A stretch of DNA of 54,429 nucleotides from Streptomyces sp. NRRL S-455 (GTDB lineage: Bacteria; Actinomycetota; Actinomycetes; Streptomycetales; Streptomycetaceae). The notes under the pieces are model-generated. The model saw only the letters and a program-made list of their open reading frames with translations. It did not search any database and had not been told where the DNA came from. The translations under genes and the position numbers were made by a program. Of this stretch, positions 1-54,429 are shown one piece after another (position 1 is the first letter of the stretch; the number at the start of each line of letters is the position of its first letter). Location: the NCBI RefSeq assembly GCF_000717875.1, contig NZ_JOCT01000040.1, forward strand, positions 1-54,429, given 5' to 3'.

Positions 1-12129
<12,129 letters not shown>

Positions 12130-14669: not shown

Positions 14670-15991
14670 CGACCACGTCAGGGAGCACGGACCGGACAGG
14701 CGTCCTGCCGCGGACCGCGCTGCACGCCAGCCTGTCCGCGCCGCTGCTCGACACGATGACCTTCCTCAACGAGGTCACCCTCCGCCATCCGCAGGCGATC
14801 TCCTTCGCCCCGGGGCGGCCGTACGAAGGCGACTTCGACGTCGCGCGCGTACCCGGACTCATCGAGACCTACCTCGACCACCTGCGCGAGCAGGGCCACT
14901 CCGAGGAACGCGTGCGCACGGCGCTCTACCAGTACGGCGAGACCGCGGGACAGATCCGGGACATCGTCGCCCGCATGCTCGACATCGACGAGGACATGAC
15001 GGTGGACCCCGCGTCCGTGGTGGTGACGGTCGGCTGCCAGGAAGCCGTCCTGCTCACGCTCCGCGCGCTGTTCACGGGCCCCGACGACGTGCTCCTCGTC
15101 GACAGTCCCTCGTACGTCGGCGTCACCGGCGCGGCCGCCCTGCTCGGGATCCCCGTCGTCGCGGTGCCCGGCACCCCGCACGGGCCGAGTCCGGAGGGAA
15201 TCGAGCGCGCCGTACGGGAGATCGAGGCGAGCGGCCGGCGCGCCAGATGTCTGTACGTGGTGCCCGACTGCTCCAACCCCACGGGCGTGAGCATGCGCCG
15301 TGAGGCCCGTACGGCCCTGCTCGACGCCGCGGACCGGCTCGGACTGCTGCTCCTGGAGGACAACCCCTACGGTGTGTTCAGCACGGTGCGGCGGCCGACG
15401 CTCAAGTCCCTCGACACCCACCGGCGCGTCATCTACCTGGGCTCCTTCGCGAAGACCGCCTTCCCGGGCGCGCGCGTCGGGTTCGTGGTCGCCGACCAGC
15501 TGGTCGAGAGCGCGGACGGCCGGGCACCGGGGCTGCTCGCCGATGAACTGGCCAAGGTCAAGAGCATGGTCACCGTCAACACCTCCAGCCTGAGCCAGGC
15601 AGCGGTCGCCGGACTGCTCCTGCAGAACGGCGGCGGGCTACGGGCGGCGAACGAGGCCGCGGCACGCCACTACCAGGCCACCATGAGGTGCCTGCGGGAG
15701 TCCCTCGCCGCCGAACTGCCCGCAGGGGCACCGGAGTCGGCGGGTGTGCGGTGGAACGATCCCGACGGCGGGTTCTTCCTGACGCTCGACGTCCCGTTCG
15801 CCGCGGACGGGGCCGCGCTGGACATCTCGGCGGAGAAGTACGGCGTCATCTGGACGCCGATGCGCCACTTCCACCTGGACGACGCGGGGGACCGGCAGAT
15901 CCGGCTCTCCTGCAGTTACCTCACCACCGACCAGGCCACCGAAGGGGCGGCACGGCTGGCCCGCTTCATCAAGGACCAGGCGCGGAACTGA
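14666..15991 (+). CDS. hpgT: 4-hydroxyphenylglycine aminotransferase (HpgT)
   Basis: A PLP-dependent class I/II aminotransferase (441 aa) that transaminates 4-hydroxyphenylglyoxylate to L-4-hydroxyphenylglycine, using Tyr as amino donor in characterised homologues and so regenerating 4-hydroxyphenylpyruvate for HmaS. Seen in the sequence: YQYGETAGQ, VTVGCQEAVLL, the PDCSNPTGVSM loop, LLLEDNPYG with the PLP-contacting Asp, and the Schiff-base Lys263 in SFAKTAFPGARVGF; RLSCSY near the C-terminus holds the carboxylate-binding Arg. It is the last gene of hmaS-hmo-hpgT and is followed by a hairpin shared with the convergent absA2. Confidence 0.94.
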   Translation: MTTTSGSTDRTGVLPRTALHASLSAPLLDTMTFLNEVTLRHPQAISFAPGRPYEGDFDVARVPGLIETYLDHLREQGHSEERVRTALYQYGETAGQIRDIVARMLDIDEDMTVDPASVVVTVGCQEAVLLTLRALFTGPDDVLLVDSPSYVGVTGAAALLGIPVVAVPGTPHGPSPEGIERAVREIEASGRRARCLYVVPDCSNPTGVSMRREARTALLDAADRLGLLLLEDNPYGVFSTVRRPTLKSLDTHRRVIYLGSFAKTAFPGARVGFVVADQLVESADGRAPGLLADELAKVKSMVTVNTSSLSQAAVAGLLLQNGGGLRAANEAAARHYQATMRCLRESLAAELPAGAPESAGVRWNDPDGGFFLTLDVPFAADGAALDISAEKYGVIWTPMRHFHLDDAGDRQIRLSCSYLTTDQATEGAARLARFIKDQARN

Positions 15992-21119: not shown

Positions 21120-21977
21120 ATGCGCAGCGCCGTCATAGTGGGCGCCGGACTGATCGGTCGCTCCGTGGGGCTCGCACTGCGGCGACACGGTGTGACCACC
21201 TACCTGATCGACGCGGACCCCGAGGCGGCGCTGGCCGGCGAGGAGTGCGGCGCGGGCTTCGCCGCGCACCCCCCGCAGCAGGCCGACATCGCGGTGATCG
21301 CCGTACCACCCGCTCTCGTCGCCCCGGTGCTCGCCGAGCACCAGAGGCTCGGCACCGCCCGCTGCTACACGGATGTCTCCGGCGTCAAGGTCCGGTTGCA
21401 CCAGGAGGCCCGGGCGCACGGCTGCGATCTGACCTCCCTGGTCAGCGGGGCACCCGTGGTCGGCGGGGGAGCGGGCCGGTCTCAGCCCCGGGCCGACCTC
21501 TTCGACGGCAGGCCGTGGGCCCTCACCCCGACCGAGTCCACCGGCAATCTCGCCCTGAACAGCGCACTGGAACTGGTCGCACTGTGCGGGGCGGTCTCGG
21601 TGCTGCTGGACCCCGAGACCCACGACCGCGCGGTCGCCCTCGTCTCGCACGCGCCGCACCTCGTCTCCAGCCTCGTCGCGGCACGGCTGCTCGGCGGCGA
21701 CGAGTCGGCCGTACGGCTGGCCGGACAGGACCTGCGCGACGTCACCAGGACCGCGGACGGCAACCCCGAGCGGTGGGCCGAGATCCTCACGGCCAACGCC
21801 GGCCCGGTCGCCGACCAACTGGACGACTGGGCGGCCGAAGCGCAGGCCATGGCACGGGAGTTGCGCGATGTCGCGCGGTCCGGGGACGCGGCCCGCCCGG
21901 TCCGGCTGCGGGAGACCCTGCGCTTCGGCGTGGCAGGGCGGGCCCGCATCCGGGAGCTGGACGCGCCCCGGCCCTGA
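21120..21977 (+). CDS. Prephenate dehydrogenase (4-hydroxyphenylpyruvate supply)
   Basis: A 285-residue NAD(P)-dependent oxidoreductase of the TyrA family. The N-terminal Rossmann motif is IVGAGLIGRSVGLALRRHG, followed by ADIAVIAVPPALVAPVL, YTDVSGVKV, the VSGAPVVGGGAGRSQ catalytic region (near the substrate-binding HPM/GxE site of the family) and SHAPHLVSSLVA with the conserved His. It converts prephenate to 4-hydroxyphenylpyruvate, the substrate of HmaS, so it feeds Hpg. The ribosome site GAGGGAGGGAG precedes ATG 21120. It matches by position the dehydrogenase gene of the S. coelicolor CDA cluster. Prephenate versus arogenate preference cannot be told from sequence. Confidence 0.9.
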   Translation: MRSAVIVGAGLIGRSVGLALRRHGVTTYLIDADPEAALAGEECGAGFAAHPPQQADIAVIAVPPALVAPVLAEHQRLGTARCYTDVSGVKVRLHQEARAHGCDLTSLVSGAPVVGGGAGRSQPRADLFDGRPWALTPTESTGNLALNSALELVALCGAVSVLLDPETHDRAVALVSHAPHLVSSLVAARLLGGDESAVRLAGQDLRDVTRTADGNPERWAEILTANAGPVADQLDDWAAEAQAMARELRDVARSGDAARPVRLRETLRFGVAGRARIRELDAPRP

Positions 21978-23935: not shown

Positions 23936-24151
23936 GTGACCAATCCGTTCGAAGACGCAGACGGCCGCTATCTCGTGCTCGTCAATGATGAGGGCCAGCA
24001 TTCGCTGTGGCCGTCCTTCGTGGACGTGCCGGCCGGGTGGACGGTCGCCTTCGGCGAGTCCGACAGGGAGGCCTGCCTGGAGTACGTGGAGAAGAACTGG
24101 ACCGACATGCGGCCCAGGAGCCTCGTCGAGGCGATGAGCGTCGACAGCTGA
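23936..24151 (+). CDS. MbtH-like protein, adenylation-domain chaperone
   Basis: A 71-residue MbtH-family protein. These bind NRPS adenylation domains and are often needed for their folding and activity. The family signature is complete: [20 protein letters not shown] with the invariant Trp and Pro, then [17 protein letters not shown]. It starts at GTG 23936 after GGAAGGAA. In this window it is the only MbtH gene, so it may serve both NRPS sets. It stands alone between the secreted hydrolase and the convergent cdaR, with its own promoter region upstream. Confidence 0.96.
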
Positions 24152-29460: not shown

Positions 29461-29490
29461 GAAAACGGATCAATATCGAGGGGAAAGTGC
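29461..29490 (+). promoter_or_regulatory. Element before glmT shared with the MbtH promoter
   Basis: The sequence starting GAAAACGGATCAATATCG matches the element at 23824-23853 at most positions (GAAAACG and CAATATCG identical, then a purine-rich GGAAA). It lies about 120 nt before the glmT start codon. Confidence 0.5.
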
Positions 29491-29609
29491 GCGCTTCTAG
29501 CTTCGTGCTCGCAGTTCTGCGGGCATCACGGTGTCCGCACCCGGCCGAAGCGGCGCCTGATCGGTGCCCGGCCGGTCACCTTCCCCCCAGGCAGAGGAGA
29601 TCCTCACTC

Positions 29610-30656
29610 ATGCACGCACAGACGAGCGGATACACCGTGACAGGGGATGACGTGCAGGGTCAGCTGGCGGAGCTCCGGCGGAGCCATCCCGAGCTGCACG
29701 CCCTTGCCGATCCGCAGCGGCTCGCCGCCTGGGAGGACGCCCTGTGCACCGCCCTGGAGCGGCACGACGACTTCGGCGCCGACCCGGAAGGCAGCCGCGG
29801 AGTGGAGTACGTGCAGGCCCAGACGCTGAACTCGCTGGCCCGCGAGGCGGGTATCCGCGAACTCCTCGGCTTCGCCGACACCGCCCGCCGCACACCGGAC
29901 GGCGAACGGCCCGTCCTGGTCGACCTGTTGGGCGGGGACGGACTGGTGCGCAAGGTGTGCGAGGAGCTGGGCATCGGCGACTTCAACATCCTGACGTGCG
30001 ACGCGTCCCCGCACATGGTCGCGTCGGCGTGGGCGGCGGGCATGCCGGCGCTGCTGCAGCGTGCGGAGCAGCCCCTGCTGCGCGACCGGACCGTCGACGC
30101 CGTGCTGCTGGCCTACGGCTCGCACCACGTGCCGCCCTCGGACCGTCAGACCGTGGCCACCGAGGCCCACCGCATGCTCCGCCCCGGCGGGACGTTCATC
30201 CTGCACGACTTCCTCGTCGGCTCGCCCGTGGACGTCTGGTTCGAGGAGGTGACCGACGTGTACTCGGCGACCGGCCACAAGTTCCTGCACTTCACCCGCG
30301 ACGAGATCGACGGCTATCTGGAGAAGGCCGGGTACGACCGCCACGAGGTCGTGGAGATCGACGACCCGTACACCGCTGTCGGCGCCACCCCGGAAGAGGC
30401 GGAGATCGAGATCGGCCGGTACCTGCTCAACATGTACGGCCTGGTCAAGGTCTTCGACGGCCGGACCGAGAACGAGGCGTACCGCTGGGTGACCGAGACC
30501 GCGAAGTCCATCTTCCGCTACCCGGAGGGAGAAGGGTCCCTCCGGGCGAGCGAGCTGCGCTACGAGGAGGCCACCGGCAAGTGGCGCATCACCATCCCGC
30601 GGCGCGCGGTCGTCGGCGTCGGGCGCATCGCCGCCGCCGGGCCCGACGGCCGCTGA
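29610..30656 (+). CDS. glmT: SAM-dependent C-methyltransferase, GlmT type
   Basis: A 348-residue class I methyltransferase. The SAM-binding core begins at about residue 102 with VLVDLLGGDGLVRKV (Asp105), then ILTCDASPHMV, VDAVLLAYGSHHVP and EAHRMLRPGGTFILHDF; an N-terminal helical extension of about 90 residues precedes it. In the S. coelicolor CDA cluster the gene beside the ATPase and trpE2 is glmT, whose product methylates alpha-ketoglutarate on the way to 3-methylglutamate. Related enzymes methylate aromatic pyruvates, so indolepyruvate or phenylpyruvate is an alternative substrate. ATG 29610 follows GAGGAGA by 9 nt. It is convergent with the LLM monooxygenase. Confidence 0.82.
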   Translation: MHAQTSGYTVTGDDVQGQLAELRRSHPELHALADPQRLAAWEDALCTALERHDDFGADPEGSRGVEYVQAQTLNSLAREAGIRELLGFADTARRTPDGERPVLVDLLGGDGLVRKVCEELGIGDFNILTCDASPHMVASAWAAGMPALLQRAEQPLLRDRTVDAVLLAYGSHHVPPSDRQTVATEAHRMLRPGGTFILHDFLVGSPVDVWFEEVTDVYSATGHKFLHFTRDEIDGYLEKAGYDRHEVVEIDDPYTAVGATPEEAEIEIGRYLLNMYGLVKVFDGRTENEAYRWVTETAKSIFRYPEGEGSLRASELRYEEATGKWRITIPRRAVVGVGRIAAAGPDGR

Positions 30657-30670
30657 ACCCGCGGCGACGG

Positions 30671-30688
30671 CGGTCCCGGCAGGGACCG
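30671..30688. terminator. Short hairpin between convergent glmT and LLM monooxygenase
   Basis: CGGTCCC (30671-30677), loop GGCA, GGGACCG (30682-30688) in the 33-nt gap between convergent stop codons; probably bidirectional. Confidence 0.6.
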
Positions 30689-30689
30689 T

Positions 30690-31709
30690 TCAGCGGGCGA
30701 AGGCGCGCCGGACCCGGTTCAGCCGGTGCAGGGCGTCCAGGGTGGCCGGGGCCGGCGCGCCGAAGTCGATGAGCGAGGCCACCTCGTCGACCCCGGCCTC
30801 CCGCAGCCGTGCCACGAAGCGGACGCACTTGTCGACCGAGCCGAGCAGTGCCGAGGTGCGGAAGTAGCGTTCGAAGGCGTGGTCGAGGAGCTGGGGGCCG
30901 CCGTGGGCGCCCAGCTCCGGCCAGCGGTCCCGCCACAGGTCCACGGAGGACGCCAGGTACTCCAGGAACGGGGCGCGCACCACCTCACGTACCGCGTCGT
31001 CGGACTCCCCGACGAAGGTGTGCACCATCAGCGTCACACGGCCGGTGTCCGGGTCGTGGCCCGCCCGCTCGCGCGCGGCACGGTACGCGCGGATCCGGGG
31101 CACCAGGTCCTCCACCCGCTGGAAGAGCAGAGCGGTCAGCACATGGAGGCCGAGCGCGCCGGCCTCCTCGAATCCCGCGGGGTGCGACGAGCAGGTCAGC
31201 CACAGGTCCAAGTCCGGCTGGACGGGCCGCGGATAGGTCGCGACCCGCGTCTGCCGTCCCTTGCCGTCGGTGCGCTCGACGGTCCTGCCCGCCCACAGGT
31301 CCCGCACCTCGGCCAGACTCTCCAGCGTGTGGGCGCGGCGGGCGGCGTAGCGCTCCGGGGCCAGCACGAAGTCGTGCGCGTTCCAGCCGGTGGCCAGGGC
31401 CAGGTCGACACGCCCGCGGGAGAGGTTGTCGACGAACGCCCAGTCCTCCACCACGGTCAGCGGGTCGTGGAGCGGGGCGACGACACTGCCCGCCCGCAGC
31501 CGGACCCGTTCGGTCCGTGCCGCGAGGGCGGCCGCGGCCAGTGCCGGATTGGGGTAGGCACCTCCGAAGGGGTGGAAGTGCCGCTCGGGCAGCCACACCG
31601 CGGTGAAGCCGTTGCGGTCGGCGAAGCGGGCGCTGTCGAAGAGCAGGTCGTACTCGGCTGGAGCGTCGTCCACTTTCCTGTTCGCGAAGTACAACAGGCT
31701 GAAATCCAT
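30690..31709 (-). CDS. Luciferase-like (LLM) flavin-dependent monooxygenase of the NRPS/PKS-associated type
   Basis: A 339-residue FMN/F420-type TIM-barrel monooxygenase. Typical segments: MDFSLLYFANRK, FTAVWLPERHFHPFGGAYPNPALAAAAL, RVRLRAGSVVAPLHDPLTVVEDWA, RGRVDLALATGWN and LWLTCSSHP. It resembles the MupA/Atu3640 subgroup that occurs with or inside NRPS and PKS enzymes and oxidises carrier-protein-bound chains. It is transcribed after the ACP gene with an 18-nt gap, so the likely substrate is the acyl chain on that ACP (hydroxylation or desaturation, inferred). I do not remember this gene in the S. coelicolor CDA cluster between glmT and trpE2, so it is probably an insertion belonging to the second assembly line. 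Confidence 0.88.
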   Translation of the reverse strand: MDFSLLYFANRKVDDAPAEYDLLFDSARFADRNGFTAVWLPERHFHPFGGAYPNPALAAAALAARTERVRLRAGSVVAPLHDPLTVVEDWAFVDNLSRGRVDLALATGWNAHDFVLAPERYAARRAHTLESLAEVRDLWAGRTVERTDGKGRQTRVATYPRPVQPDLDLWLTCSSHPAGFEEAGALGLHVLTALLFQRVEDLVPRIRAYRAARERAGHDPDTGRVTLMVHTFVGESDDAVREVVRAPFLEYLASSVDLWRDRWPELGAHGGPQLLDHAFERYFRTSALLGSVDKCVRFVARLREAGVDEVASLIDFGAPAPATLDALHRLNRVRRAFAR

Positions 31710-31727
31710 GACTGATTGCCCGCCCTC

Positions 31728-32024
31728 TCAGTTCGCGCTGCCCAGGGCGCCGGCCGGCGTGTCCGCCAGTTTCCGCGCGATGAGGAGGCCGAGTGCTTCC
31801 AGGCTCGGGTGGTCCCACATTTCGTCGGCAGTGACGACGACGCCGAAGTGGTCCTCGATATCGGCGGCCAGACCCGCGGAACCGACGGAGTTCAAGCCGT
31901 GGTCCGAGAGCGGCCGCCCCGGGTCGATGTCCTGTGCCGGGAGCCCGACGTGACTGGCGAAACAGGTGATGAGCCAGGTCCGGACGGTCTCGGGAGAGTG
32001 CTGGGCGTGCGCCATGTCCACCAT
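31728..32024 (-). CDS. Free-standing acyl carrier protein
   Basis: A 98-residue carrier protein. The phosphopantetheine site is Ser46 in DHGLNSVGSAGL; the residue before Ser is Asn where most carriers have Asp. DIEDHFGVVVTADEMWDHPSLEALGLLIARKLA is the typical helix II-IV part. It is of the kind that takes acyl groups from fatty-acyl-AMP ligases, and a FAAL is encoded at 37597. The gene precedes the LLM monooxygenase on one transcript and is divergent from trpE2. Two starts are possible: ATG 32024 (GAGGGGA very close) and ATG 32015. A role as acyl donor to the starter C domain at 39441 is inferred. Confidence 0.88.
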   Translation of the reverse strand: MVDMAHAQHSPETVRTWLITCFASHVGLPAQDIDPGRPLSDHGLNSVGSAGLAADIEDHFGVVVTADEMWDHPSLEALGLLIARKLADTPAGALGSAN

Positions 32025-32280
32025 GTCCCCTCGGTTGCTGATGCGTTGGCAGATGGTGGAGACGCGGTCCGCAACTCGGGGCGAGCAAATGCGTTGGATC
32101 CACCGGAAAGTAACAGTGCGTGTGACGTAACGTCAAGGCATTCCGGGGGCCGCGCAAGGGATATGCCTTCAATAGCGAAGCTATAAGGCTCATACATAAA
32201 GTGCGGAGCGGTGGATTCACGGCCGCATTTGATTTCTGCCGTTCGTCGGCAGGCGAGTAATTCACGACAGGGAAGGCGAC
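32025..32280. promoter_or_regulatory. Divergent promoter region ACP/trpE2 with an inverted repeat
   Basis: A 256-nt, partly AT-rich gap between divergent genes. A perfect inverted repeat CTGCCG-TTCGT-CGGCAG lies at 32236-32252, 28 nt before the trpE2 start. Each arm matches the CTGCCG core of the CCTGCCGAAAGT elements, so it may bind the same regulator. GGGAAGG precedes ATG 32281. Confidence 0.55.
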
Positions 32281-33770
32281 ATGACCACCCATCCCATCGA
32301 AGAACTCACGGCGGACGCGGCCGAGGCCGCCCGCGCCACCGTGCCCCACCGCGCCGCCGCCGCGGCGCTGGCGCGGGACTACGACGTCATCCCGCTCCAC
32401 CAGGAGTTCCTGGCCGATGTGATCAGCCCTGTCACCGCGTTCTCCCAGCTGTGCGGGCCGGACGAGGCCGGCTTCCTGCTGGAGAGCGTGCCCGTCTCCG
32501 GCGGCGTCGCGCGCTACTCGTACGTGGGACACCGGCCGGTACCGCTCGACCTGCCCGACGGTGACCCGCTGGCCGCACTGGAACCCCTGCTCGCGGCGTC
32601 GGAGGCCCCGCTGCACGGCCTGCCGCCGTTCCACGGTGGCGTCGTCGGCTACCTCGGCTACGAGGCGGCACGCCACTTCGAGGAGTTGCCGGTCTCCGCG
32701 GGCGCGCCGCCCGGCCTGCCCGAGTCCGCCTTCCTGGCCGCCGACGACCTGGTGGTCTTCGACCACGCCACCCGGCGCGTCCTGCTGATGACCCTGTACC
32801 GCCCGGCACACGAGTCCTACGACGACGCCGTCGCCCGGATCGTCCACCTCAACCACAGGCTGCGGGACGCGGGCAGGCCCGATGGGTTCACGGGCCGGCC
32901 GCTCGCGGACACCGCCCCGCCGGACGCGGAGGCGACGGACGGCTGGACCGCCAACCTCACCGAGGCGGAGTTCAAGGGCCGTGTCGCCCGCGCCCGCGAG
33001 CACATCGCGGCCGGCGACGCCTTCCAGATCGTGCTGTCCCGGCGCCTCAGCAGGCCCCTGCGTGCCGAACCGCTCGACCTGTACCGGCATCTGCGGGCGA
33101 CCAACCCGTCGCCGTACATGTACCACCTGAGCCTGGGCGGGGGCCGCCATGTCATCGGGGCCTCACCCGAACTGCTCGTCAAGGCGGAGGGCCGCCGCGT
33201 GGAGACCCGGCCGCTGGCCGGCACCCGGCCCCGGCATCTCGACCCCCGCCAGGACCTGGACCTGGAGCACGAACTGCTCGCCGACGAGAAGGAACGCGCC
33301 GAGCACGTGATGCTGGTCGACCTCGGCCGCAACGACCTCGGCAGGGTCACCGAACCGGGCACCGTACAGGTGGAGCAGCTCATGCGGGTCGAGCGCTTCT
33401 CCCACGTGATGCACCTGTCGTCCACCGTCTCGGGCCTGCTCGCGCCGGGCCGCGGCGCGCTGGACGCCCTGCGGTCCACCTTCCCCGCCGGAACGCTCTC
33501 CGGAGCGCCCAAGATCCGCGCCATGGAGATCATCGCGGAGCTGGAGCCCCAGCAGCGCGGTGTCTACGGCGGTGCCCTCGGCTTCGTGGGCCTCGACGGA
33601 CTGACCGACTTCGCGATCGCCCTGCGCACCATGGTCGTGGCCGACGGCCAGGTGCACGTCCAGGCGGGCGCGGGCATCGTCGCCGACTCCGACCCCACGT
33701 CCGAGTACCGCGAGACGCTGCACAAGTCGCGCGCGATGATCACGGCCGTACGGCGGGCGGAGGCCCAGGC

Positions 33771-33774
<4 letters not shown>
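32281..33774 (+). CDS. trpE2: Anthranilate synthase component I
   Basis: A 497-residue chorismate-utilising enzyme that forms anthranilate from chorismate, with glutamine-derived ammonia from TrpG. Seen: N-terminal tryptophan-regulatory-type region (LLESVPVSGGVARYSYVG), then the catalytic half with EAEFKGRVARAREHIAAGDAFQIVLSRR, NPSPYMYHLSLGG, IGASPELLVK, ETRPLAGTRPR, DEKERAEHVMLVDLGRNDLGRV, TFPAGTLSGAPKIRAMEII and AGAGIVADSDPTSEY. It opens the operon trpE2-G2-D2-C2-DAHP synthase that supplies Trp for the lipopeptide; a cluster-borne second trp set is a hallmark of the CDA locus. The stop overlaps the trpG2 start. Confidence 0.95.
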
Positions 33775-34371
<597 letters not shown>

Positions 34372-34379
<8 letters not shown>

Positions 34380-35397
34380 GCTACTGAGAACGGTCACCCG
34401 GCGGCGCCTGACCGAGGCCGAGGCGGCCGAGGCGATGCGCGTGATCATGCGCGGCGAGGCGACACCGGCCCAGATCGCGGGGTTCGCGCTGGCCGTCACG
34501 GTGCGCGGCGCCTCCGTCGACGACCTCGTGGGAATGGCCCGCGCGGCCCAGGAGTTCGCCACCCCCGTCCGGTGCGAGGGTGAGCTGCTCGACACCTGCG
34601 GAACCGGCGGCGACGGCCTGAACACCTTCAACGTCTCCACCGTGTCCGCGATCGTCGCCGCGGCCTGCGGGGTCCGCGTCGCCAAGCACGGCAACCGCAG
34701 CGCGTCGTCCGCCTGCGGCAGCGCGGACGTCCTGGAGGAACTCGGGGTCCGCATCGACCTCGGTGCCGACGAAGCCGCCGCCTGTCTGCGGAGCACCGGC
34801 ATCACCTTCCTGTTCGCCCCGCTCTTCCACCCGGCCTTCAAGCACACGTCCGGCCCGCGCCGGGAACTGGGCACGCGCACCGTCTTCAACCTCCTGGGAC
34901 CGCTGTGCAACCCGTCGGGCGCGCGCCTGCGCACCCTCGGAGTGCCGAGCCGGGACCTCGTGGAGCCGATGACCGAGGTCCTCGACCGGCTCGGCGTCAC
35001 CCGCGCCCTGGTGTTCCACAGCGAGGACGGCATGGACGAGCTGAGCACCGGCGCACCCGCCCACGTGGTCGAACTGCGCGACGGCCGGCGCACCACCCAC
35101 CGCTTCGACGCCGCCGACCACGGGCTGCCGCGGTCCCGCCCCGGCGACCTGACCGGCGGCGACCGCGCCGTCAACGCGGCCGTCGTCCGCCGCGTCCTCG
35201 CCGGTGAGCCGGGGCCCGCGCGGGACGTCGTCCTGCTCAACGCGGCCGCGGCCCTGCGGGTCGCCGCCCTGGCCGACACCTGGGCCGACGGGCTGCGCCT
35301 CGCCGGCTCGGCGGTCGACAGCGGCGCCGCCGCCGATCTGCTCGAACGCTGGACCCGCGCCTCCTGGCAGCGGGCGGAACTGGAGGTGCCCGCGTGA
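34372..35397 (+). CDS. trpD2: Anthranilate phosphoribosyltransferase
   Basis: A 341-residue enzyme that joins anthranilate to phosphoribosyl pyrophosphate. Family marks: GEATPAQIAGFALAVTVRG, LLDTCGTGGDGLNTFNVST (the glycine-rich PRPP loop), VAKHGNRSASSACGSADVLE, the FAPLFHPAFKHTSGPRRELG segment and FNLLGPLCNPSGA. ATG 34372 is chosen for GGAG 7 nt upstream, with an 8-nt overlap with trpG2; GTG 34369 directly before it is the only alternative. Normal length, no missing catalytic motif. Confidence 0.95.
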
Positions 35398-36170
35398 GCG
35401 ACATCCTCGTGACCCTCGTCGCAGACGCCGAACGGCAGACGGAACGGCGACGCGCGGTCCGCCCCGAGACCGAGCTGGTCGTGCTTGCCGCGGCCGCGCC
35501 CCCGCCCCGGGACTTCGCCGCCGCCCTGCGGCAGCCGGGCCTCGGCGTCATCGCCGAGATGAAGCCCCGCAGCCCCTCCAAGGGGCCGCTCACCGACGAC
35601 TACCGGCCTGCCGAGCTGGCCCGCGCCTATCAGGGCGGCGGCGCCTGCGCCCTGTCGGTCCTCACCCACGAGGACGGCTTCGGAGGCAGCCCCGACCACC
35701 TCGTGGTCGCCCGTGACGCATCCGACGTCCCCGTCCTGCGCAAGGACTTCATCGTCGACGAGTACCAGATCCTGGAGGCCAGGGCGCTCGGCGCCGATGC
35801 CCTGCTGCTCATCGTCGCCGCGCTGACCCCCGAGCGGCTGGCCGAACTCCTCGCGTACACCCGGAAGTACGGCATGGAGGCGCTGGTCGAGGTGCACGAC
35901 GAGGGCGAGGTGGACACCGCTCTGGCGGCGGGCGCCGACGTCATCGGCGTCAACCACCGTGACCTGAGGGACTTCTCGATCGACCGGACCCTCTCCGCCC
36001 GGCTGCGCGAGCGGGTGGGCGGCCGGCGGGTCATGGTCGGCGAGAGCGGCGTGCGCGGCGCACCGGACGCGCGCGATCTAAAACGGGCCGGCGTGGACGC
36101 GGTCCTCGTCGGAGAACTGCTCATGCGGGCCGGGGATCCCGGCGCCACGATCAAGGAACTGATCGGATGA
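35394..36170 (+). CDS. trpC2: Indole-3-glycerol phosphate synthase
   Basis: A 258-residue TIM-barrel enzyme that closes the indole ring from the phosphoribosylanthranilate product. Typical strands: VIAEMKPRSPSKGPL with catalytic Lys and Glu region, ALSVLTHEDGFGGS, VLRKDFIVDEYQILEARALG, ADALLLIVAAL, EALVEVHDEGE, VIGVNHRDLRDFSID and VMVGESGVRG. It starts with GTG overlapping the trpD2 stop (GTGA). The isomerase step (PriA) and tryptophan synthase are not encoded here and must come from primary metabolism. Confidence 0.95.
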   Translation: MSDILVTLVADAERQTERRRAVRPETELVVLAAAAPPPRDFAAALRQPGLGVIAEMKPRSPSKGPLTDDYRPAELARAYQGGGACALSVLTHEDGFGGSPDHLVVARDASDVPVLRKDFIVDEYQILEARALGADALLLIVAALTPERLAELLAYTRKYGMEALVEVHDEGEVDTALAAGADVIGVNHRDLRDFSIDRTLSARLRERVGGRRVMVGESGVRGAPDARDLKRAGVDAVLVGELLMRAGDPGATIKELIG

Positions 36171-37600
36171 CAGCGAGCGACACACACACGACAGCACCGG
36201 CGGCCCCGTACCGCCCGGATACCGCGGCCGGTACGGGTGAGGGAGCCTGGAGCCCCGCATCGTGGCGCGGCCGCCCCGCCGCGCAGCAGCCCGACTGGCC
36301 CGACCCGGAGGAACTGCGGCGCGTGGAGGACACCCTCGCCCTGCAGCCCCCACTGGTGCTCCCGGACGAGATCCTCGACCTGCGGCACTCCCTCGCCCAG
36401 GTCGCCGCCGGAGAGGGATTCCTGCTGCAGGCGGGAGACTGCGCCGAACGGTTCAGCTCCTGCACCGAGTCCGGCGTCCGAAGCAAGCTGCGCGTGATCC
36501 TCCAGGTGGCCATCCTGCTCACCTACGGATCCGGTCTGCCCGTGGTGAAGGTCGGGCGGATCGGCGGCCAGTTCGGCAAGCCCCGCAGCCGCCCCACCGA
36601 GACGATCGACGGCACCGAACTGCCCGCCTACCGCGGTGACATCGTCAACGGCCCCGAGTTCACCCCCGAGGCACGCCGCGCGGACGCCACCCGGCTGCTC
36701 CGCGCCTACCAGCACTCGTCGGCGGTCCTGAACGTCCTGCGGGCCCTGACCCTGGGCGGGTACGCCGACCTCGGCCAGGTCCACGACTGGAACCAGGAGT
36801 TCGTCCGCGGCAGCGCCGCCGGACAGCGGTACGAGAAGGCCGCCGACGACATCACCTGGGCCCTGAGGTTCATGTCGGCCTGCGGCGTGGACACCCGCTC
36901 CCAGGCCGCGCTGCACCAGATCCAGCTCTACACCTCGCACGAGGCGCTGCTGCCCCACTACGAGCAGGCGCTGACCCGCTACGACGAGAAGCGGCGCACC
37001 TGGTTCGACACCAGTGCGCACATGGTGTGGATCGGTGACCGCACCCGCCAACTCGACGGTGCCCACGTCGAGTTGCTGTCCGGCATCGGCAACCCCGTCG
37101 GGGTCAAGGTCGGCCCCACCACGACACCCGGGCAGCTGCGCGAGCTGTGCGAGCGCCTCGACCCGGACCGGGCGCCGGGACGCCTCGTCCTGATCAGCAG
37201 GCTCGGCGCCGGAAAGGCCACCGAACTGCTGCCGCCGCTGCTGCGTGCCGTGCGCGACGCGGGACACGCCCCGGTGTGGGCCTGCGACCCCATGCACGGC
37301 AACACCTTCGTCTCCGACAGCGGCTACAAGACCCGCCGGCTCTCCGACATCACCACCGAGGTGGCCGAGTTCTTCGCGGTGCACCGGCAGGAGGGCCTGC
37401 ATCCGGGCGGCATCCACCTCGAACTCACCGGCGACGACGTCACCGAGTGCCTCGGTGGCGACCTCGAGGAAGTGCTCGACACCCACCTCGCCACCCGCTA
37501 CGAAACCGCCTGCGACCCACGCCTGAACGCCGTCCAGTCCATCGAACTCGCCTTCCGCGTCGGGGAGTTCCTGCGTGAGCTCCGGCGCGGCGAACGATGA
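36167..37600 (+). CDS. Class II DAHP synthase (3-deoxy-7-phosphoheptulonate synthase)
   Basis: A 477-residue plant-type (class II) DAHP synthase, the entry enzyme of the shikimate pathway, condensing phosphoenolpyruvate and erythrose 4-phosphate. Seen: QAGDCAERF, VVKVGRIGGQFGKPRS, YRGDIVNG, TSHEALLPHYEQALTR, WIGDRTRQLDGAHVELL, GNPVGVKVGP, WACDPMHGNTF and GGIHLELTGDDVTECLGG. Its start overlaps the trpC2 stop (ATGA) and its stop overlaps the FAAL start (ATGA). A dedicated copy raises aromatic flux for Trp and Hpg, and the S. coelicolor CDA cluster has one next to trpC2. Feedback insensitivity is plausible but not visible. Confidence 0.95.
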   Translation: MTASDTHTTAPAAPYRPDTAAGTGEGAWSPASWRGRPAAQQPDWPDPEELRRVEDTLALQPPLVLPDEILDLRHSLAQVAAGEGFLLQAGDCAERFSSCTESGVRSKLRVILQVAILLTYGSGLPVVKVGRIGGQFGKPRSRPTETIDGTELPAYRGDIVNGPEFTPEARRADATRLLRAYQHSSAVLNVLRALTLGGYADLGQVHDWNQEFVRGSAAGQRYEKAADDITWALRFMSACGVDTRSQAALHQIQLYTSHEALLPHYEQALTRYDEKRRTWFDTSAHMVWIGDRTRQLDGAHVELLSGIGNPVGVKVGPTTTPGQLRELCERLDPDRAPGRLVLISRLGAGKATELLPPLLRAVRDAGHAPVWACDPMHGNTFVSDSGYKTRRLSDITTEVAEFFAVHRQEGLHPGGIHLELTGDDVTECLGGDLEEVLDTHLATRYETACDPRLNAVQSIELAFRVGEFLRELRRGER

Positions 37601-39396
37601 ACGACATACGCGAGGCGGCCGGTCTGCCCGAGGTCCTGCGCGCCCTGGCCCGCTCGCAGCCCGACGAGGCGGCGTTGATCCACATCCGGGTCCCGGACGC
37701 CGACGACGGCCACGACACGCTGACGTACGCCCGGCTGGACCTGGCGGCACGTGAGCTCGCGGCACGGCTGCGCGCGGAGGCGGGGCTCGTCCCCGGGGAC
37801 CGGGTGCTCCTCCAGCTTCCGTCCGGTACACGGTTCCCCGTCGCCTTCTTCGGATGCCTGTACGCGGGACTCATCGCCGTACCCGCGCCGCTGCCCGGCA
37901 ACAACCGGCGAGAACTCCTGCGGGTCAAGGGGATCGTGCGCCAGGCAGGCGTCCGCGCGATCCTCACCGACGGCGAGAACCGCCCGGCGGTCCGCGCATG
38001 GCTGAGCGCCCAGTCACTGGAGGACGTCCCGCTCCTGGTGACCGAGGGACCGGACGGGGCCCCGCCCGGCCCGGCCGACGCCCCGCCCCCGCTGCCCGGC
38101 GAGACCGCGCGCCACGACACCCCCGCCCTGATCCAGTACACCTCGGGCTCCACCTCCGACCCCAAGGGCGTCGTGGTCACCCACGGCAATCTGCTGCACA
38201 ACGTCGCGGTCATGGGGGCGAGCTTCGCCGTCCCGCCCGGCACCCGGCACGGTGGCTGGATACCCCTCTACCACGACATGGGACTCGTCGGTCACCTGCT
38301 CACCGGCGTCCTGCTGGGCAGAGGCGCCGTGACGATGAACCCGATCGCCTTCATACGCAAGCCCCACCAATGGCTGCGCGTCATCGACCGGTTCGCCATC
38401 GGACACTCCAACGCACCCGACTTCGCCTACGCGTTGTGCCTACGGCGCACCCGCCCCGACCAGATCGAGGGGCTCGACCTGTCGCGCTGGCGGTACGCGG
38501 TCAACGGCTCGGAACCCGTGCACGCACCCACGCTGCGGGCGTTCACCGAACGGTTCGTGCCCTACGGCTTCCGCCCGGATGCCCTGGTGCCCTGCTACGG
38601 CATGGCGGAGGCCACCCTGTACGTGTCGGGAACGGTGTCGCGGCCCCCCGCCACGCTCCACGCAGACGCCGCCCTCCTGGAACGGAACGTGCTCGCCGCC
38701 GCGAAGCCGGCCGACCCCGCGCGGAGCACCACGCGCGAACTCGTCAGCTGCGGCGAACTGCACGACCTCACCTGCCGGATCGTCGATCCCGAGACCGGCG
38801 CCGCGCTCCCCGACGGGACCGTCGGGGAGATCTGGCTCCGCGGACCCGGCGTCGCCCACGGCTACTGGGACAACACGGCGGCGACCGAGGAGATCTTCGG
38901 CGCCGTGCTCGACGGCGAGCCCTATCTGCGCACCGGCGACCTGGGGGCGCTCCTCGACGGTGAACTCTTCCTCACCGGCCGGAGGAAGGAGGCCCTGACG
39001 GTCAACGGCCGCAATCTCTATCCGCAGGACATCGAGCACGAACTGCGCAGCCGCCACCCCGAGCTGGCCGCGCTGCCGGGCGCCGCGTTCACCGTCGTCG
39101 ACCGGCGCGGCGAGCGCCACGAGGAGGCCCTCGTGGTGACGCAGGAGATCGCGCGGCACCTCCCCGACGAGCAGTACGCGCGGCTCGCCGCCGACATGAA
39201 GCGGACGGTCGTGCGCGAGTTCGGGCTCCCCGTGCGGGGGGTGGCGCTGCTGCGCCGGGGCACGGTCCGGCGTACGACGAGCGGCAAGATCCAGCGGGTC
39301 GCCATGCGGGAGCTGTTCCTCGCCGACGCCCTGCGGCCGCTCTACGCGGACTGGTGGACGGGCGGGCCGGGCGGGACGGACGGGCCTGAGCGATAA
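37597..39396 (+). CDS. Fatty-acyl-AMP ligase (FAAL) for lipopeptide initiation
   Basis: A 599-residue acyl-adenylate enzyme. Family motifs: [20 protein letters not shown] (A3, Tyr181), WIPLYHDMGLVGHLLTGVL, NAPDFAYALC, YRLRPD-like PCYGMAEATLYVSG, TGDLGALLDGELFLTGRRKEAL and C-terminal TSGKIQR. The layout is that of FAALs, which activate a fatty acid as acyl-AMP and load it on a carrier protein rather than CoA. The ACP encoded at 31728 is the obvious partner and the starter C domain at 39441 the acceptor. The ATG overlaps the DAHP synthase stop by 4 nt, coupling it to the trp operon. I know of no FAAL at this position in the S. coelicolor CDA cluster. Confidence 0.93.
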   Translation: MNDIREAAGLPEVLRALARSQPDEAALIHIRVPDADDGHDTLTYARLDLAARELAARLRAEAGLVPGDRVLLQLPSGTRFPVAFFGCLYAGLIAVPAPLPGNNRRELLRVKGIVRQAGVRAILTDGENRPAVRAWLSAQSLEDVPLLVTEGPDGAPPGPADAPPPLPGETARHDTPALIQYTSGSTSDPKGVVVTHGNLLHNVAVMGASFAVPPGTRHGGWIPLYHDMGLVGHLLTGVLLGRGAVTMNPIAFIRKPHQWLRVIDRFAIGHSNAPDFAYALCLRRTRPDQIEGLDLSRWRYAVNGSEPVHAPTLRAFTERFVPYGFRPDALVPCYGMAEATLYVSGTVSRPPATLHADAALLERNVLAAAKPADPARSTTRELVSCGELHDLTCRIVDPETGAALPDGTVGEIWLRGPGVAHGYWDNTAATEEIFGAVLDGEPYLRTGDLGALLDGELFLTGRRKEALTVNGRNLYPQDIEHELRSRHPELAALPGAAFTVVDRRGERHEEALVVTQEIARHLPDEQYARLAADMKRTVVREFGLPVRGVALLRRGTVRRTTSGKIQRVAMRELFLADALRPLYADWWTGGPGGTDGPER

Positions 39397-39440
39397 CGCG
39401 CCGATAGGGCGCGCATGCCGGTCCCCCCGAGACTGGCGGA

Positions 39441-50614
<11,174 letters not shown>

Positions 50615-50673
50615 CCGGCCAGGACACCGCACGTGGCGCCGTACACCGCACCCGGCACAGAGGAGAACCCCGA

Positions 50674-53600
50674 GTGATCCCCCTATCGTTCGCGCAGCGG
50701 AGCCTGTGGCTCACCGGGCAGCTTGAGGGCCGCTCGGCCACGTACAACATCCCGCTCGCCCTGCGCCTGACCGGGGTCCTGGACCGGGCGGCTCTGGCGG
50801 CGGCGCTGCGGGACCTGGTCGAGCGGCACGAGAGCCTGCGGACCGTGATCGGGCGGCACGAGGGCGAGCCCTGCCAGGTGATCCTCGACACCGACGACGT
50901 GGGCGAGCTCCTGACGGACGTGACACCGACCGCCACGAGCCCCCGGGACGAGACCGAACCCGGAGCCGGAGCCGGACCCGAACCCGCTGTGGTCCCGGGC
51001 GAGTTCACCACGTACGAGTTCGATCTCACGACGCAGGCACCGCTGCGGGCGTGGCTGTGCGGGATCGGACCGGACGAGCACCTCCTCACCCTGGTCGTGC
51101 ACCACATCGCGGCCGACGGCTGGTCGATGGGCGTGCTGCTGCGTGACCTCGGGCAGGCCTACGCGGCACGACGCGAGGGGCGCGCCCCCGAGTGGGAGGC
51201 GCTGCCGGTGCAGTACGCGGACTACACCCTGTGGCAGCGCGAACTGCTCGGCGACGAGGGCGACCCGCACAGTCTCGCCGCCCGCCAGCTGGCCCACTGG
51301 CGGGACCGGCTGGCGGGCCTGCCGGAGGAACTGACCCTGCCCACGGACCGGCCCCGCCCACCGGTCGCGAGCCGGCGCGGCGGCACGGTCCCGCTGGAGT
51401 TCGGCCCGGAGCTGCACGGCCACCTCACCGAGGTCGCCCACGAGCTGGGCGCGAGCCTGTTCATGGTGGTGTGTGCCGGGCTGGTGGCCTTGCTGTCCCG
51501 GCTCGGCGCGGGCGACCACATCACCGTCGGCACACCGGTGGCGGGCCGCACCGACGACGCCCTGAGCGATCTGGTGGGCTGCTTCGTCAACACCCTCGTG
51601 CTGCGCACCGACGCGAGCGGCGATCCGACGTTCACGGACCTCGTGCAGCGCGTACGGGAGGCGGACCTGGCGGCGCTCGCACACCAGGACATCCCGTTCG
51701 AGCGGCTCGTGGAGGCCGTGAACCCGGCGCGCTCGCCGTCCCGCCACCCGCTGTTCCAGGTGATGCTCGCCTTCCAGAAATTCACCGACGTGGCACCCCA
51801 ACTTCCCGATCTTCAAGTCGAGTTGCTGCCGCTCGACAGTCCCGCCGCCCACTTCGACCTCTCCTTCGACCTCACCGAACGGCACGACGCCGACGGCCGG
51901 GCGGCCGGCATCACCGGCACCCTCTGCCATGCCACCGACCTGTACACCCACGACACCGCCCGGCGCATCGCCGAGCGCCTCGTCCGCCTCCTGACCGCCG
52001 CCGCCGACGACCCGCGGCGGCCGGTCGCCGCCCTCGACCTCCTCGCCCCGGCCGAGCGCGCACTCCTCCTGGCCGAAGGGCACGGCACCCGCGGCCCGGC
52101 CGCCCGGCCGGACACGGTGACAGGGCTGTTCGCGGCGCGCGTGGCGCAGCGCCCGGACGCGACCGCGCTCGTCTTCGCGGACACCGAACTCACCTACCGT
52201 GACCTCGACACCCTCTCCGACCGCCTCGCCCAGCGCCTGCGCGCCCGTGGCGCGGGCCCCGAACGCCTGGTCGCGGTCGTCATGGACCGCTCCGCCGACC
52301 TCGTCGTGACGCTCCTCGCGGTCCTCAAGACCGGCGCCGGCTACGTCCCGCTCGAACCCGAAACACCCCCGGCACGGACCCGCCTCGTCCTCGACGACAC
52401 GCGCCCGGTCCTCCTGCTCACCGACGGCACCGCCGAACTCCCGCCGGACACCGGCATCCCCCTCCTCGACGTCACCGCCGGCCACGACGCGACGGCCCAC
52501 CGCGACGAGGGCGGTACGCACCCGACGCCGCCGCCCGCCCCCGTCCACCCCGGCAACGCCGTGTACGTGATGTACACGTCCGGCTCGACGGGCCGGCCGA
52601 AGGGCGTCGTGACACCGCACGCGGCCGTGGCGGCGTTCGCGGCCCACCCGCCGTGGCGGCGCGACGGCGCCCCGGACGCCGTGCTCTTCCACGCCAACCA
52701 CGCCTTCGACGCGTCGACCTACGAGGTCTGGGCCACGCTCGCCCACGGCGGCCGCGTGGTGATCGCCCCGCCGGGTCCCCTGAACGGCGCGGCCGTGGCC
52801 GAGCACATCGCCCGGCACGGCCTGACCCGGCTCCATGCGACCGCCGGCCTCTTCCGTGTCTGGGCGGAGGAGGAACCGGAGGTCTTCAAGGGGCTGCGCG
52901 AGGTGACGACCGGCGGTGACGTCGTCTCCGCCGCCGGGGTCCGCGCGGTGCTGCGCGCCTGCCCGGACACCGTGGTCACGGCCGCGTACGGCCCCACCGA
53001 GACAACCGCCTTCAGCACGCTCGGCACCTTCACCGGGGACCCGGACCGCGTCCCGAACACGGTGCCGATCGGCCGCCCGATGGACGGCATGCGCACCTAC
53101 GTCCTCGACCATCGCCTGGCCCTCGTACCGCCCGGCGTCGTCGGGGAGCTGTACGTGGCGGGCACCGGCCTCGCGCGCGGCTACGCCCACCTCCCCGGCC
53201 TGACCGCGGAGCGCTTCGTGGCGGACCCGTACGCGGCGGCGTACGGAGCCGGGGGCGAGCGCATGTACCGCACCGGAGACCTGGCCCGCCGACTGCCCGA
53301 CGGGCAGCTGGAGTTCGCGGGCCGCGTCGACGACCAGGTGAAGGTGCGCGGCTTCCGCGTCGAGCTGGGCGAGGTCGAGGCCGCGCTGCTCGGTCACCCG
53401 GACGTGGCGCGCACGGTCGCGGCGGTCAAGGAGGACGGCTCCGGCGACAAGAACCTGATCGGATACGTCGTTCCGGAACGCGCCGACCGCCCGGAACCGG
53501 CCCCCGACGGTGCCCCGGAGCCCGTGGACACCGAGGCGATCCTCCGCCACGCCCGGACCGTCCTCCCCGACCACGCGGTGCCGTCCGCGATCGTGCTCCT

Positions 53601-54429
53601 TCGGACGCTGCCGCTCACCGCCAACGGCAAGCTGGACCGCGCGGCCCTGCCCCATCCCGGCCCCATCGCCGCGACCTCCGGCGGCCGCGCCCCCCGCTCC
53701 CCGCGCGAACACGCCCTGTGCGCGCTGTTCGCCGAGATCCTCGGCCTGCCCGAGGTGACGATCGACGACAACTTCTTCGCCCTGGGCGGGCATTCGCTGC
53801 TCGCGACCCGCCTGGTGAGCCGGGTGCGGACCGAACTCGGCGTCGACCTGGGTATGGCGGAGCTGTACGCGGCGCAGACGGTGGAGGCGCTGGCCCGCGA
53901 ACTCCCCGGCACCGGCGGCAGGCCGCGCCCACCCCTACGCGCCGTCCGGCACCGGCCCGCCCGGCTTCCGGTGTCCTTCGCCCAGCAGCGGCTCTGGTTC
54001 CTGGGGGAGCTGTCCGGCCGCTCGGCGACGTACAACATCCCCTTGACGGTCCGGCTGACCGGCCCCGTGGACATCGCCGCCCTCGCGGCGGCGCTGCGCG
54101 ACGTGGTCGAGCGGCACGAGAGCCTGCGGACGGTGATCGGTCAGGCCGAGGGTGAGCCGTACCAGCGGGTGCTCGGCATGGCCGAGGCGGGCGAACTGCT
54201 CAGGGTGGTGGAGGCGGTCCCGCGGGAGCTGCCGCACAAGGCGGCCACCCACGAGTTCGACCTGGCGGAGGAGCCGCCGCTACGGGCGTGGTTGACCGCG
54301 ACCGGCCCCGACGAACACCTCCTCGCCCTGGTGGTGCACCACATCGCGGGCGACGGCTGGTCGATGGGGCCGCTGGCACGTGATCTGGGGCGGGCGTATG
54401 CGGCGCGTTGTGAGGGGCGGGGCCCGGGG
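50674..54429 (+). CDS. NRPS, C-A-T-C..., N-terminal 1252 residues (continues beyond window)
   Basis: The frame is open from GTG 50674 (GAGGAGA upstream) to the right edge. Domains: C1 of the LCL type ([26 protein letters not shown]), A1 (from about 480, [11 protein letters not shown]), T1 ([15 protein letters not shown]) and C2 ([26 protein letters not shown] near the edge). A1 specificity residues read DAYHTGAAFK, nearly the same pattern as A1 of the NRPS at 39441 (DAYHSGTAFK), so both may activate the same or a related amino acid, which I cannot name. C1 being LCL agrees with the absence of an E domain in the upstream protein. It lies 59 nt after the upstream NRPS stop and is probably co-transcribed. 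Confidence 0.94.

What the first reader, a model, noticed from the sequence alone, without database searches (positions are those of the whole stretch)
29610..54429. A second, FAAL-primed lipopeptide assembly line interleaved with a CDA-type cluster
Seen: two NRPS sets on the two sides of the window, each with its own starter-type C domain (WLAQQLDP and WLAHQLDP openings). The left set reads Ser-Thr-(Trp)-E as in CDA. The right set reads X-Ser(E)-X-X, with a FAAL, a free ACP and an LLM monooxygenase. From memory the S. coelicolor CDA locus runs glmT-trpE2 directly and has no FAAL or NRPS after the DAHP synthase. The extra genes are thus placed on both sides of the Trp operon, which points to a supercluster making two lipopeptides with shared precursors, MbtH and regulators.
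Basis: partly seen in the sequence, partly recalled or inferred. Interest (0 to 1): 0.85.

Follow-up and report, generated by a model that had tools for sequence, protein, structure and literature searches.

The report
Second lipopeptide factory inside CDA cluster
In one Streptomyces genome, genes that look like the machinery for a second fatty-acid-capped peptide lie on both sides of a precursor operon inside the gene cluster for a known antibiotic (CDA), so that two assembly lines sit in one interlocked block.

Summary
The window is one whole contig (C40). Its left NRPS is CdaPS1-like; the rest of the CDA line, with its own lipid genes, lies on contigs C55 and C5, so CDA does not need the right-hand NRPSs. 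In the 3 other CDA genomes found, glmT overlaps trpE and no FAAL or NRPS was seen in about 14 kb after the DAHP synthase. Here an LLM monooxygenase and an ACP separate glmT from trpE, and a FAAL overlaps the DAHP synthase stop and leads into C*-A1-T-C-Ser-T-E / C-Val-T / C-A4-T-C. By elimination and sequence affinity the line continues on contig C19: A5-T-TE, dpgA-dpgB-dpgC. Best reading: a separate FAAL/ACP-primed lipopeptide line of at least five modules, probably with 3,5-dihydroxyphenylglycine at positions 1 and 4. In strain G5(2025), relatives of FAAL, LLM and DpgA are listed on contigs of one length. My paper searches listed no lipopeptide with FAAL and Dpg. The C40-C19 join, two products, and shared precursors, MbtH or regulators are inferred. 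New variant of a known kind.

The parts
1..12141 (-). CdaPS1-type NRPS (3' end beyond contig): C*-A(Ser)-T-C-A(Thr)-T-C-A(Trp)-T-E-C
   Evidence: Pfam, pocket codes, tree
12400..13515 (+). HmaS, hydroxyphenylpyruvate dioxygenase family (Hpg pathway)
   Evidence: same place in 3 other CDA genomes
13356..14669 (+). Hmo, FMN-dependent hydroxymandelate oxidase type (Hpg pathway)
   Evidence: FMN_dh; name recalled
14678..15991 (+). HpgT-type aminotransferase (start approximate; ORF read from 13901); for Hpg, probably also serves Dpg
   Evidence: PF00155; 89-90% in 3 other CDA genomes; function inferred
21120..21977 (+). prephenate dehydrogenase
23936..24151 (+). MbtH protein, one of two found in the genome
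24386..26557 (-). SARP-type regulator (BTAD, NB-ARC), probably CdaR (start approximate)
   Evidence: 71-79% in 3 other CDA genomes
29487..30656 (+). GlmT-type methyltransferase (3-methyl-glutamate of CDA)
   Evidence: 84-85% to three other genomes
30690..31709 (-). LLM monooxygenase, TIGR04020 (MupA/PuwE type); between glmT and trpE
   Evidence: 452.6 bits, cut-off 244.45; PuwE 6ket; no hit in three CDA genomes' loci
31728..32024 (-). free-standing acyl carrier protein, FAAL-partner type
   Evidence: tblastn hit in 50 of 80 FAAL loci against 0 of 80 for the CDA ACP
32281..33774 (+). TrpE2
33771..34379 (+). TrpG2
34369..35397 (+). TrpD2
35394..36170 (+). TrpC2
36167..37600 (+). class II DAHP synthase
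37597..39396 (+). FAAL; ATGA overlap with the DAHP synthase stop codon
39441..47426 (+). NRPS 1 of the second line: C*-A1(DAYHSGTAF)-T-C-A2(Ser)-T-E
47423..50614 (+). NRPS 2: C(DCL type)-A3(Val code DAYFWGVTF)-T
   Evidence: Val match
50674..54429 (+). NRPS 3: C-A4(DAYHTGAAF)-T-C(partial), open at the contig end; probably continues on G000:C19 (L010) as C(end)-A5-T-TE then dpgA-dpgB-dpgC

Best explanation
A second lipopeptide NRPS line has been inserted into a CDA cluster, on both sides of its trp2/DAHP-synthase operon. Inferred route: the FAAL adenylates a fatty acid and loads it on the free ACP; the LLM hydroxylates the carrier-bound acyl chain, perhaps at C2 as proposed for the PuwE oxygenase domain; the starter C domain of NRPS 1 joins the acyl group to residue 1; the line then adds D-Ser, Val, residue 4 and residue 5, and a TE releases or cyclises the product. 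Residues 1 and 4 are most likely 3,5-dihydroxyphenylglycine, made by DpgA, DpgB and DpgC with the CDA cluster's HpgT as transaminase. MbtH, and perhaps the CDA transporter and regulators, serve both lines. Shown by sequence: gene order and domain order on C40, separation from CDA, the Ser and Val codes, Dpg enzymes on C19. Inferred: the C40-C19 join, the Dpg positions, the LLM reaction, sharing, production.
For: CDA is accounted for without the right set: C55 reads T-C-A(Hpg)-T-E; C5 reads Gly, Asn(E) and CdaPS3 with codes DQGKTGVGH and DGWAVASVC, equal to the CDA codes printed in PMC9113097, plus TE; FabH, acyl-CoA oxidase-type, KS and ACP genes lie downstream on C5. PMC9113097 states that CDA does not use FAAL/ACP initiation. 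Three of three other CDA genomes found lack the inserted genes at this place. Starter C of the right line is outside the CDA starter-C clade (support 100). Link to C19: C40-right and C19-left are the NRPS contig ends left over once CDA is assigned; the C fragment at the C19 start is nearest to two right-line C domains (61% each; CDA C domains 50-56%) and the A5 module is nearest to the right-line Ser module (59%, other module-length matches at most 52%). DpgA, DpgB, DpgC pass equivalog cut-offs. Close relatives of FAAL, LLM and DpgA overlap in S. sp. G5(2025) (one contig length, 2107766, for all three), S. kanamyceticus and NPDC087300 (FAAL, DpgA) and S. formicae (LLM, DpgA). A3 code equals the glycinocin Val code.
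Against: No contig joins C40 to C19, and a further module could be missing in the gap. None of the 18 ORFs taken from the first 20 kb of C19 matches the about 14 kb that follow DAHPS in the three CDA genomes (count of ORFs), so the far side of a clean insertion was not found. LLM was not listed for S. kanamyceticus or NPDC087300 (120 of 142 listed) and is in 0 of 80 other FAAL loci, so it may be accessory. In NPDC087300 FAAL and DpgA are on different contigs. No DpgD over the cut-off in the genome. Codes for A1 and A4 matched nothing in a paper search, and A5 (DAPTLGCVD) is unassigned. No expression or product data.
Confidence: 0.8

Rival explanations
1. The right-hand NRPSs belong to the CDA assembly line (a variant, longer CDA).
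For: They lie in the same locus and the CDA line is broken over three contigs.
Against: Eight of the 11 CDA positions (1, 2, 3, 6, 8, 9, 10, 11) are read from C40-left, C55 and C5, in CDA order and with its own TE; the three unread positions (4, 5, 7) fall in the two assembly gaps. The right line has its own starter C and FAAL and, if C19 joins, its own TE.
Confidence: 0.03
2. The LLM and ACP serve CDA tailoring and only the FAAL-NRPS block is foreign.
For: They sit beside glmT and are transcribed away from the FAAL block. LLM is in 0 of 80 other FAAL loci.
Against: No LLM or ACP hit in the CDA loci of three other genomes. The ACP resembles ACPs near FAALs (50 of 80 loci) and CDA has its own ACP on C5. 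Of the LLM's nearest named relatives, those of G5(2025) and S. formicae are in strains or species that also carry the DpgA relative, and in G5(2025) the FAAL.
Confidence: 0.1
3. The second line is longer than five modules: modules are missing between C40 and C19, as happened to CDA modules 4, 5 and 7.
For: The same assembly has no sequence for those CDA modules at C40/C55/C5.
Against: The cut is inside a C domain, with profile positions 5-164 on C40 and 299-398 on C19, so a gap of about 400 bases is enough; NRPS 3 plus C19 would then be a C-A-T-C-A-T-TE protein, the dimodular terminator described for this lipopeptide group.
Confidence: 0.25
4. Misassembly: a chimeric contig has put an unrelated NRPS cluster beside the CDA genes.
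For: Draft assembly of 120 contigs.
Against: Both junctions (glmT/LLM and DAHPS/FAAL) lie well inside the contig, and their exact text occurs once in the window (the rest of the genome was not checked). DAHPS and FAAL overlap by four bases, a normal operon junction; the ribosome-binding stretch of trpE is kept.
Confidence: 0.04

Closest known systems
CDA (calcium-dependent antibiotic) cluster of Streptomyces coelicolor type
   Same: Left and middle part: CdaPS1, HmaS, Hmo, AbsA1/A2, ABC pair, MbtH, P-type ATPase, GlmT, trpE-G-D-C, DAHP synthase in the same order as in three other genomes; HpgT and the SARP are there too; CdaPS3 codes equal to print.
   Different: LLM and ACP split glmT from trpE; FAAL and NRPS genes follow DAHP synthase.
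FAAL/ACP-initiated actinobacterial lipopeptides (daptomycin, A54145, friulimicin, glycinocin, malacidin, telomycin; PMC9113097, passages)
   Same: FAAL, free ACP, starter C domain, probable dimodular C-A-T-C-A-T-TE terminator.
   Different: Short (5 modules read), no Asp or Gly code and so no Asp-X-Asp-Gly calcium motif; Dpg genes; MupA-type LLM. Of the 120 FAAL relatives listed, only those of S. kanamyceticus, NPDC087300 and G5(2025) exceed 63%.
Dpg pathway of glycopeptide-type clusters (DpgA, DpgB, DpgC, DpgD, HpgT; composition recalled)
   Same: DpgA, DpgB, DpgC equivalogs in a row.
   Different: No DpgD over cut-off in the genome; the line is lipid-primed.
Puwainaphycin PuwC/PuwD/PuwE (cyanobacterial FAAL, ACP, LLM oxygenase; PMC4219810, passages)
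   Same: FAAL, separate ACP and an LLM oxygenase homologous to PuwE 6ket.
   Different: No PKS module or aminotransferase domain in the right-hand genes of C40; the LLM is a separate protein.

Membership tests
CDA cluster (left part) | NRPS codes Ser-Thr-Trp(E)-Asp-Asp-Hpg(E)-Asp-Gly-Asn(E)-mGlu-Trp-TE | tested here: met
   8 of 11 positions read and all 8 fit; positions 4, 5, 7 lie in assembly gaps. Order of residues recalled; mGlu and Trp codes checked in PMC9113097.
CDA cluster (left part) | own FabH/FabF/ACP/acyl-CoA oxidase lipid genes, no FAAL | tested here: met
   FabH, KS, ACP and acyl-CoA oxidase-type genes present on C5; that these supply the CDA acyl chain is recalled; CDA without FAAL is stated in PMC9113097
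FAAL/ACP-initiated lipopeptide line (right part) | FAAL | tested here: met
   solved relatives are mostly FAALs or FAAL-like domains (17 sequences); best NCBIfam models are FAAL-type, all below their curated cut-offs
FAAL/ACP-initiated lipopeptide line (right part) | free-standing ACP | tested here: met
FAAL/ACP-initiated lipopeptide line (right part) | starter-type C domain on first module | tested here: met
   inside the 45-row starter clade (99)
FAAL/ACP-initiated lipopeptide line (right part) | dimodular C-A-T-C-A-T-TE terminator | tested here: inconclusive
   holds only if C40 and C19 join
Calcium-dependent lipopeptide antibiotics (right part) | Asp-X-Asp-Gly calcium-binding stretch | tested here: not met
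   no Asp or Gly code among the five A domains read; a missing module cannot be excluded
Dpg-containing peptide | DpgA, DpgB, DpgC | tested here: met
   615, 184.6 and 581.1 bits against cut-offs 425, 140 and 530
Dpg-containing peptide | DpgD | tested here: not met
   17 matches in own genome, 0 over the cut-off
Dpg-containing peptide | A domains that activate Dpg | not testable with these tools
   A1 and A4 codes are only similar to the recalled Dpg code; no printed match found
MupA/PuwE LLM family | TIGR04020 match over cut-off | tested here: met
   452.6 against 244.45 bits

The most novel reading that the evidence does not exclude
A natural two-product supercluster in which an ancestral glmT-trpE coupling was split so that the trp2/DAHP-synthase operon now heads the operon of a second, FAAL-primed, Dpg-containing lipopeptide of about five residues (2-hydroxyacyl-Dpg-D-Ser-Val-Dpg-X), with MbtH, HpgT, transporter and regulators used by both lines.
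Probability: 0.4. Interest if true: 0.7.

Novelty: new variant of a known kind. Interest (0 to 1): 0.55.

Why it matters
It gives a concrete pair of antibiotic-type lines threaded into one locus, with three CDA clusters without the insertion for comparison, so the build-up of a supercluster around a precursor operon can be studied. It also points to a lipid-primed Dpg peptide for which my paper searches listed no precedent, with relatives of its key enzymes in a few named Streptomyces (S. kanamyceticus, S. formicae, G5(2025)), and offers a testable case of MbtH and HpgT shared between two lines.

Tried and rejected
Rejected: right NRPSs as part of CDA. Rejected: recent duplication of the CDA line; the starter C domains of the two lines lie in different groups (100 for the CDA clade) and the chain C domains also fall apart, though with lower support (91, 81). 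Rejected: arrangement standard in CDA producers. Rejected for two of the other NRPS contigs: C19 belonging to another line; the C21 and C1 NRPS genes are inside long contigs. The ends of C10 and C4, which also hold C domains, were not checked; the C-domain genes of C11 start 31 kb in.

Led nowhere: other draws of genomes to reach S. kanamyceticus or S. formicae (0 of 323 genomes with a FAAL at E <= 1e-205; 1 of 394, the own genome, with a DpgA at E <= 1e-170). In the first draw 117 of 392 genomes had a FAAL at E <= 1e-120, the best after the own one at 58%. Paper searches for a FAAL plus Dpg lipopeptide: 0, 0, 31 (20 listed), 5 (4 listed) and 1 paper; nothing in the listings fits, and the one is on mycobacterial polyketides. 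Searches on S. kanamyceticus lipopeptides and CDA superclusters were seen as listings only. My first automatic pocket-code scripts misread position 278 in some domains; the alignment-based codes are the ones used. In the tree I left out loci L001-L008 and L092-L127 and C domains shorter than 330 residues, the cut ones at the ends of C40 and C19 among them. Two plus-strand ORFs used as queries (24221-24901, 25019-26071) lie opposite the SARP and are probably not genes; I do not count them as evidence.

Papers: PMC9113097 outline, passages and section 35; PMC10952193 passages; PMC4219810 passages; PMC11376024 passages; the others as search listings only. Recalled, from no call: the CDA residue order, the CDA gene names and acyl-supply role of the C5 lipid genes, the glycopeptide Dpg pocket code, the make-up of the Dpg pathway, and HpgT serving both Hpg and Dpg.
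Full report
What was checked. The window is contig C40 of an 8.23 Mb, 120-contig genome. Its left NRPS (1-12141, minus strand) and right NRPSs (39441-54429) both run off the contig.

The left line is CDA. Alignment-based pocket codes are DVWHFSLVD (Ser), DFWNVGMVH (Thr), DAWSVGSVC (Trp, followed by E). Contig C55 carries T-C-A(DVYHLGLLC, Hpg)-T-E and the start of the next protein. Contig C5 carries Gly (DILQLGLIW), Asn (DLTKVGEVG) with E, and a last protein with DQGKTGVGH, DGWAVASVC and TE. The last two codes are those printed for 3-methyl-Glu and Trp of CDA in PMC9113097. So 8 of 11 CDA positions are read; positions 4, 5 and 7 are lost in two gaps, where C40-left and C55 end in the same repeated C-domain text. 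C5 also holds FabH, acyl-CoA oxidase-type, KS and ACP genes. The CDA line therefore has its own lipid genes and TE and does not need the right-hand genes. PMC9113097 says that CDA is not started by a FAAL/ACP.

The arrangement is not standard. GlmT was sought in 392 genomes of the genus; 16 matched at E <= 1e-40, the own genome included, and three others are at 84-85% (G118, G136, G246), the rest at 50% or less. In these three the order CdaPS1-HmaS-Hmo-AbsA-ABC-PLA2-PDH-PAF hydrolase-MbtH-P-type ATPase-GlmT-TrpE-G-D-C-DAHPS is the same as in the window, with HpgT (89-90%) and the SARP (71-79%) also there. Over the 40 kb read from each, LLM and ACP give no hit and FAAL gives only one 32% cross-hit, inside an NRPS A domain of G246; in the about 14 kb read after DAHPS there is no FAAL or right-type NRPS. 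GlmT and TrpE overlap by four bases in all three. In the window LLM and ACP stand between them, while the ribosome-binding stretch and start of trpE are kept. FAAL overlaps the DAHPS stop by four bases, so trpE to NRPS 3 looks like one operon behind a new divergent intergenic region. None of these three genomes has a DpgA over the family cut-off (2 of 5 genomes do, G000 and G011).

The right line is a different line. In a tree of 117 C domains (for rows left out see Tried and rejected) the right starter C lies in the 45-row starter clade (99) but outside the CDA starter clade (four rows, 100). The two full chain-type C domains of the right line pair with each other (91) outside the 25-row group (81) that holds the CDA chain C domains; neither of these last two values reaches the 95 mark. 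NRPS 2 opens with a C domain of the 23-row clade (99) that also holds the first C of CdaPS3, which follows an E domain; this fits D-Ser at position 2.

It probably continues on C19. C19 starts inside a C domain (profile from 299), C40 ends inside one (profile to 164). Once CDA has taken C40-left, both ends of C55 and C5-left, these two are the NRPS ends left; C21 and C1 NRPS genes are internal, the ends of C10 and C4 were not checked. The C fragment on C19 is 61% identical to each of two right-line C domains and 50-56% to CDA ones; the A5 module is 59% identical to the right Ser module and at most 52% to other modules (a 118-residue carrier-domain stretch of C55 is at 58%). After A5-T-TE come DpgA, DpgB and DpgC, all over their equivalog cut-offs. 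Outside data agree in part. DpgA has five relatives at 82-85% (NPDC059002, S. formicae, S. kanamyceticus, G5(2025), NPDC087300), then 74% and below (120 of 2734 listed). FAAL has three at 75% (S. kanamyceticus, NPDC087300, G5(2025)), then 63% and below (120 of 250 listed). LLM has, among named ones, S. iakyrus 95%, G5(2025) 88%, S. formicae 80% (120 of 142 listed). For G5(2025) all three proteins are listed with a contig of 2107766 bases; for S. kanamyceticus FAAL and DpgA with one of 10133897. For NPDC087300 the two contigs differ, and for S. formicae LLM and DpgA carry different contig lengths (4510 and 9611874), perhaps two strains. LLM was not listed by name for S. kanamyceticus or NPDC087300, nor FAAL or DpgA for S. 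iakyrus. Against a clean insertion: none of 18 ORFs from the first 20 kb of C19 matches what follows DAHPS in the three CDA genomes (count of ORFs).

How it would work. FAAL and the free ACP prime the line: an ACP like this one is found in 50 of 80 FAAL loci (up to 10 kb on each side), while the CDA ACP finds 0 of 80. The LLM is of the MupA/PuwE family; its nearest solved relative is PuwE 6ket. In puwainaphycin the oxygenase domain is proposed to help give a 3-amino-2-hydroxy acyl chain (PMC4219810); MupA was shown to hydroxylate the alpha carbon of an ACP-bound beta-keto thioester and to need both the ACP and the beta-keto group (PMC10952193). No ketosynthase was found among the right-hand genes, so the MupA chemistry cannot be carried over as it stands, and the LLM step is a guess of moderate strength. 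Against it: LLM is in 0 of 80 other FAAL loci, so FAAL with LLM is an uncommon pair there. A3 (DAYFWGVTF) equals the code printed for Val in three glycinocin-type strains. A1 (DAYHSGTAF) and A4 (DAYHTGAAF) share the D, Y, H and G positions with Hpg (DVYHLGLLC on C55) and with the Dpg code as I recall it; smaller residues at 299 and 322 would leave room for two meta hydroxyls (inference). Together with dpgABC this makes Dpg at 1 and 4 the best guess. A5 (DAPTLGCVD) is closest to Ser-type domains and is unassigned. DpgD is not found over the cut-off, so a general crotonase may stand in, or the pathway runs without it.

Sharing. The genome search found two MbtH genes, one here and one on C1; the right block has none of its own. 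HpgT is in the CDA half; no aminotransferase is among the seven C19 proteins scanned, up to 9.4 kb. I saw no transporter or regulator among the right-hand genes of C40. This makes sharing likely but does not show it.

Verdict. As a kind of thing it is known: FAAL-primed lipopeptide lines, Dpg pathways and neighbouring clusters all have precedents (for example the S. ambofaciens lipopeptide cluster beside spiramycin, PMC9113097). The combination, and the way it is threaded through the CDA operon, are new as far as my searches reach (open-access PMC texts only).

Noticed in passing
L011 (G000:C55) 1-1131, minus strand: The start of the second CDA NRPS is broken into two reading frames close to the contig end, probably an assembly error in a repeated C domain.
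   Followed up: no
L134 (G011:C8:1-20000): Another Streptomyces cluster with a starter-type C NRPS, MbtH, FabF-type KS, a stand-alone LLM 64% identical to the window's, DpgA, DpgB, DpgC, a further enoyl-CoA hydratase (DpgD-like by position), a read-through Hmo-aminotransferase ORF and HmaS: an LLM again beside Dpg genes.
   Followed up: partly
G000:C21:252625-264412 (L143): A further NRPS locus in the same genome with two LLM matches inside long open frames.
   Followed up: no
20545-21039 and 22633-23823: A prokaryotic phospholipase A2 and a PAF-acetylhydrolase-type protein are conserved in the CDA cluster of the four genomes compared; role unknown to me.
   Followed up: no
L010 (G000:C19) about 422-1940: A5 has the odd pocket code DAPTLGCVD although its sequence is closest to Ser domains.
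   Followed up: no
16787-18487: AbsA1 is only 75-76% identical to its counterparts in the three CDA genomes while AbsA2 and ABC1 beside it are 94-96%, so the sensor kinase seems to have diverged faster.
   Followed up: no
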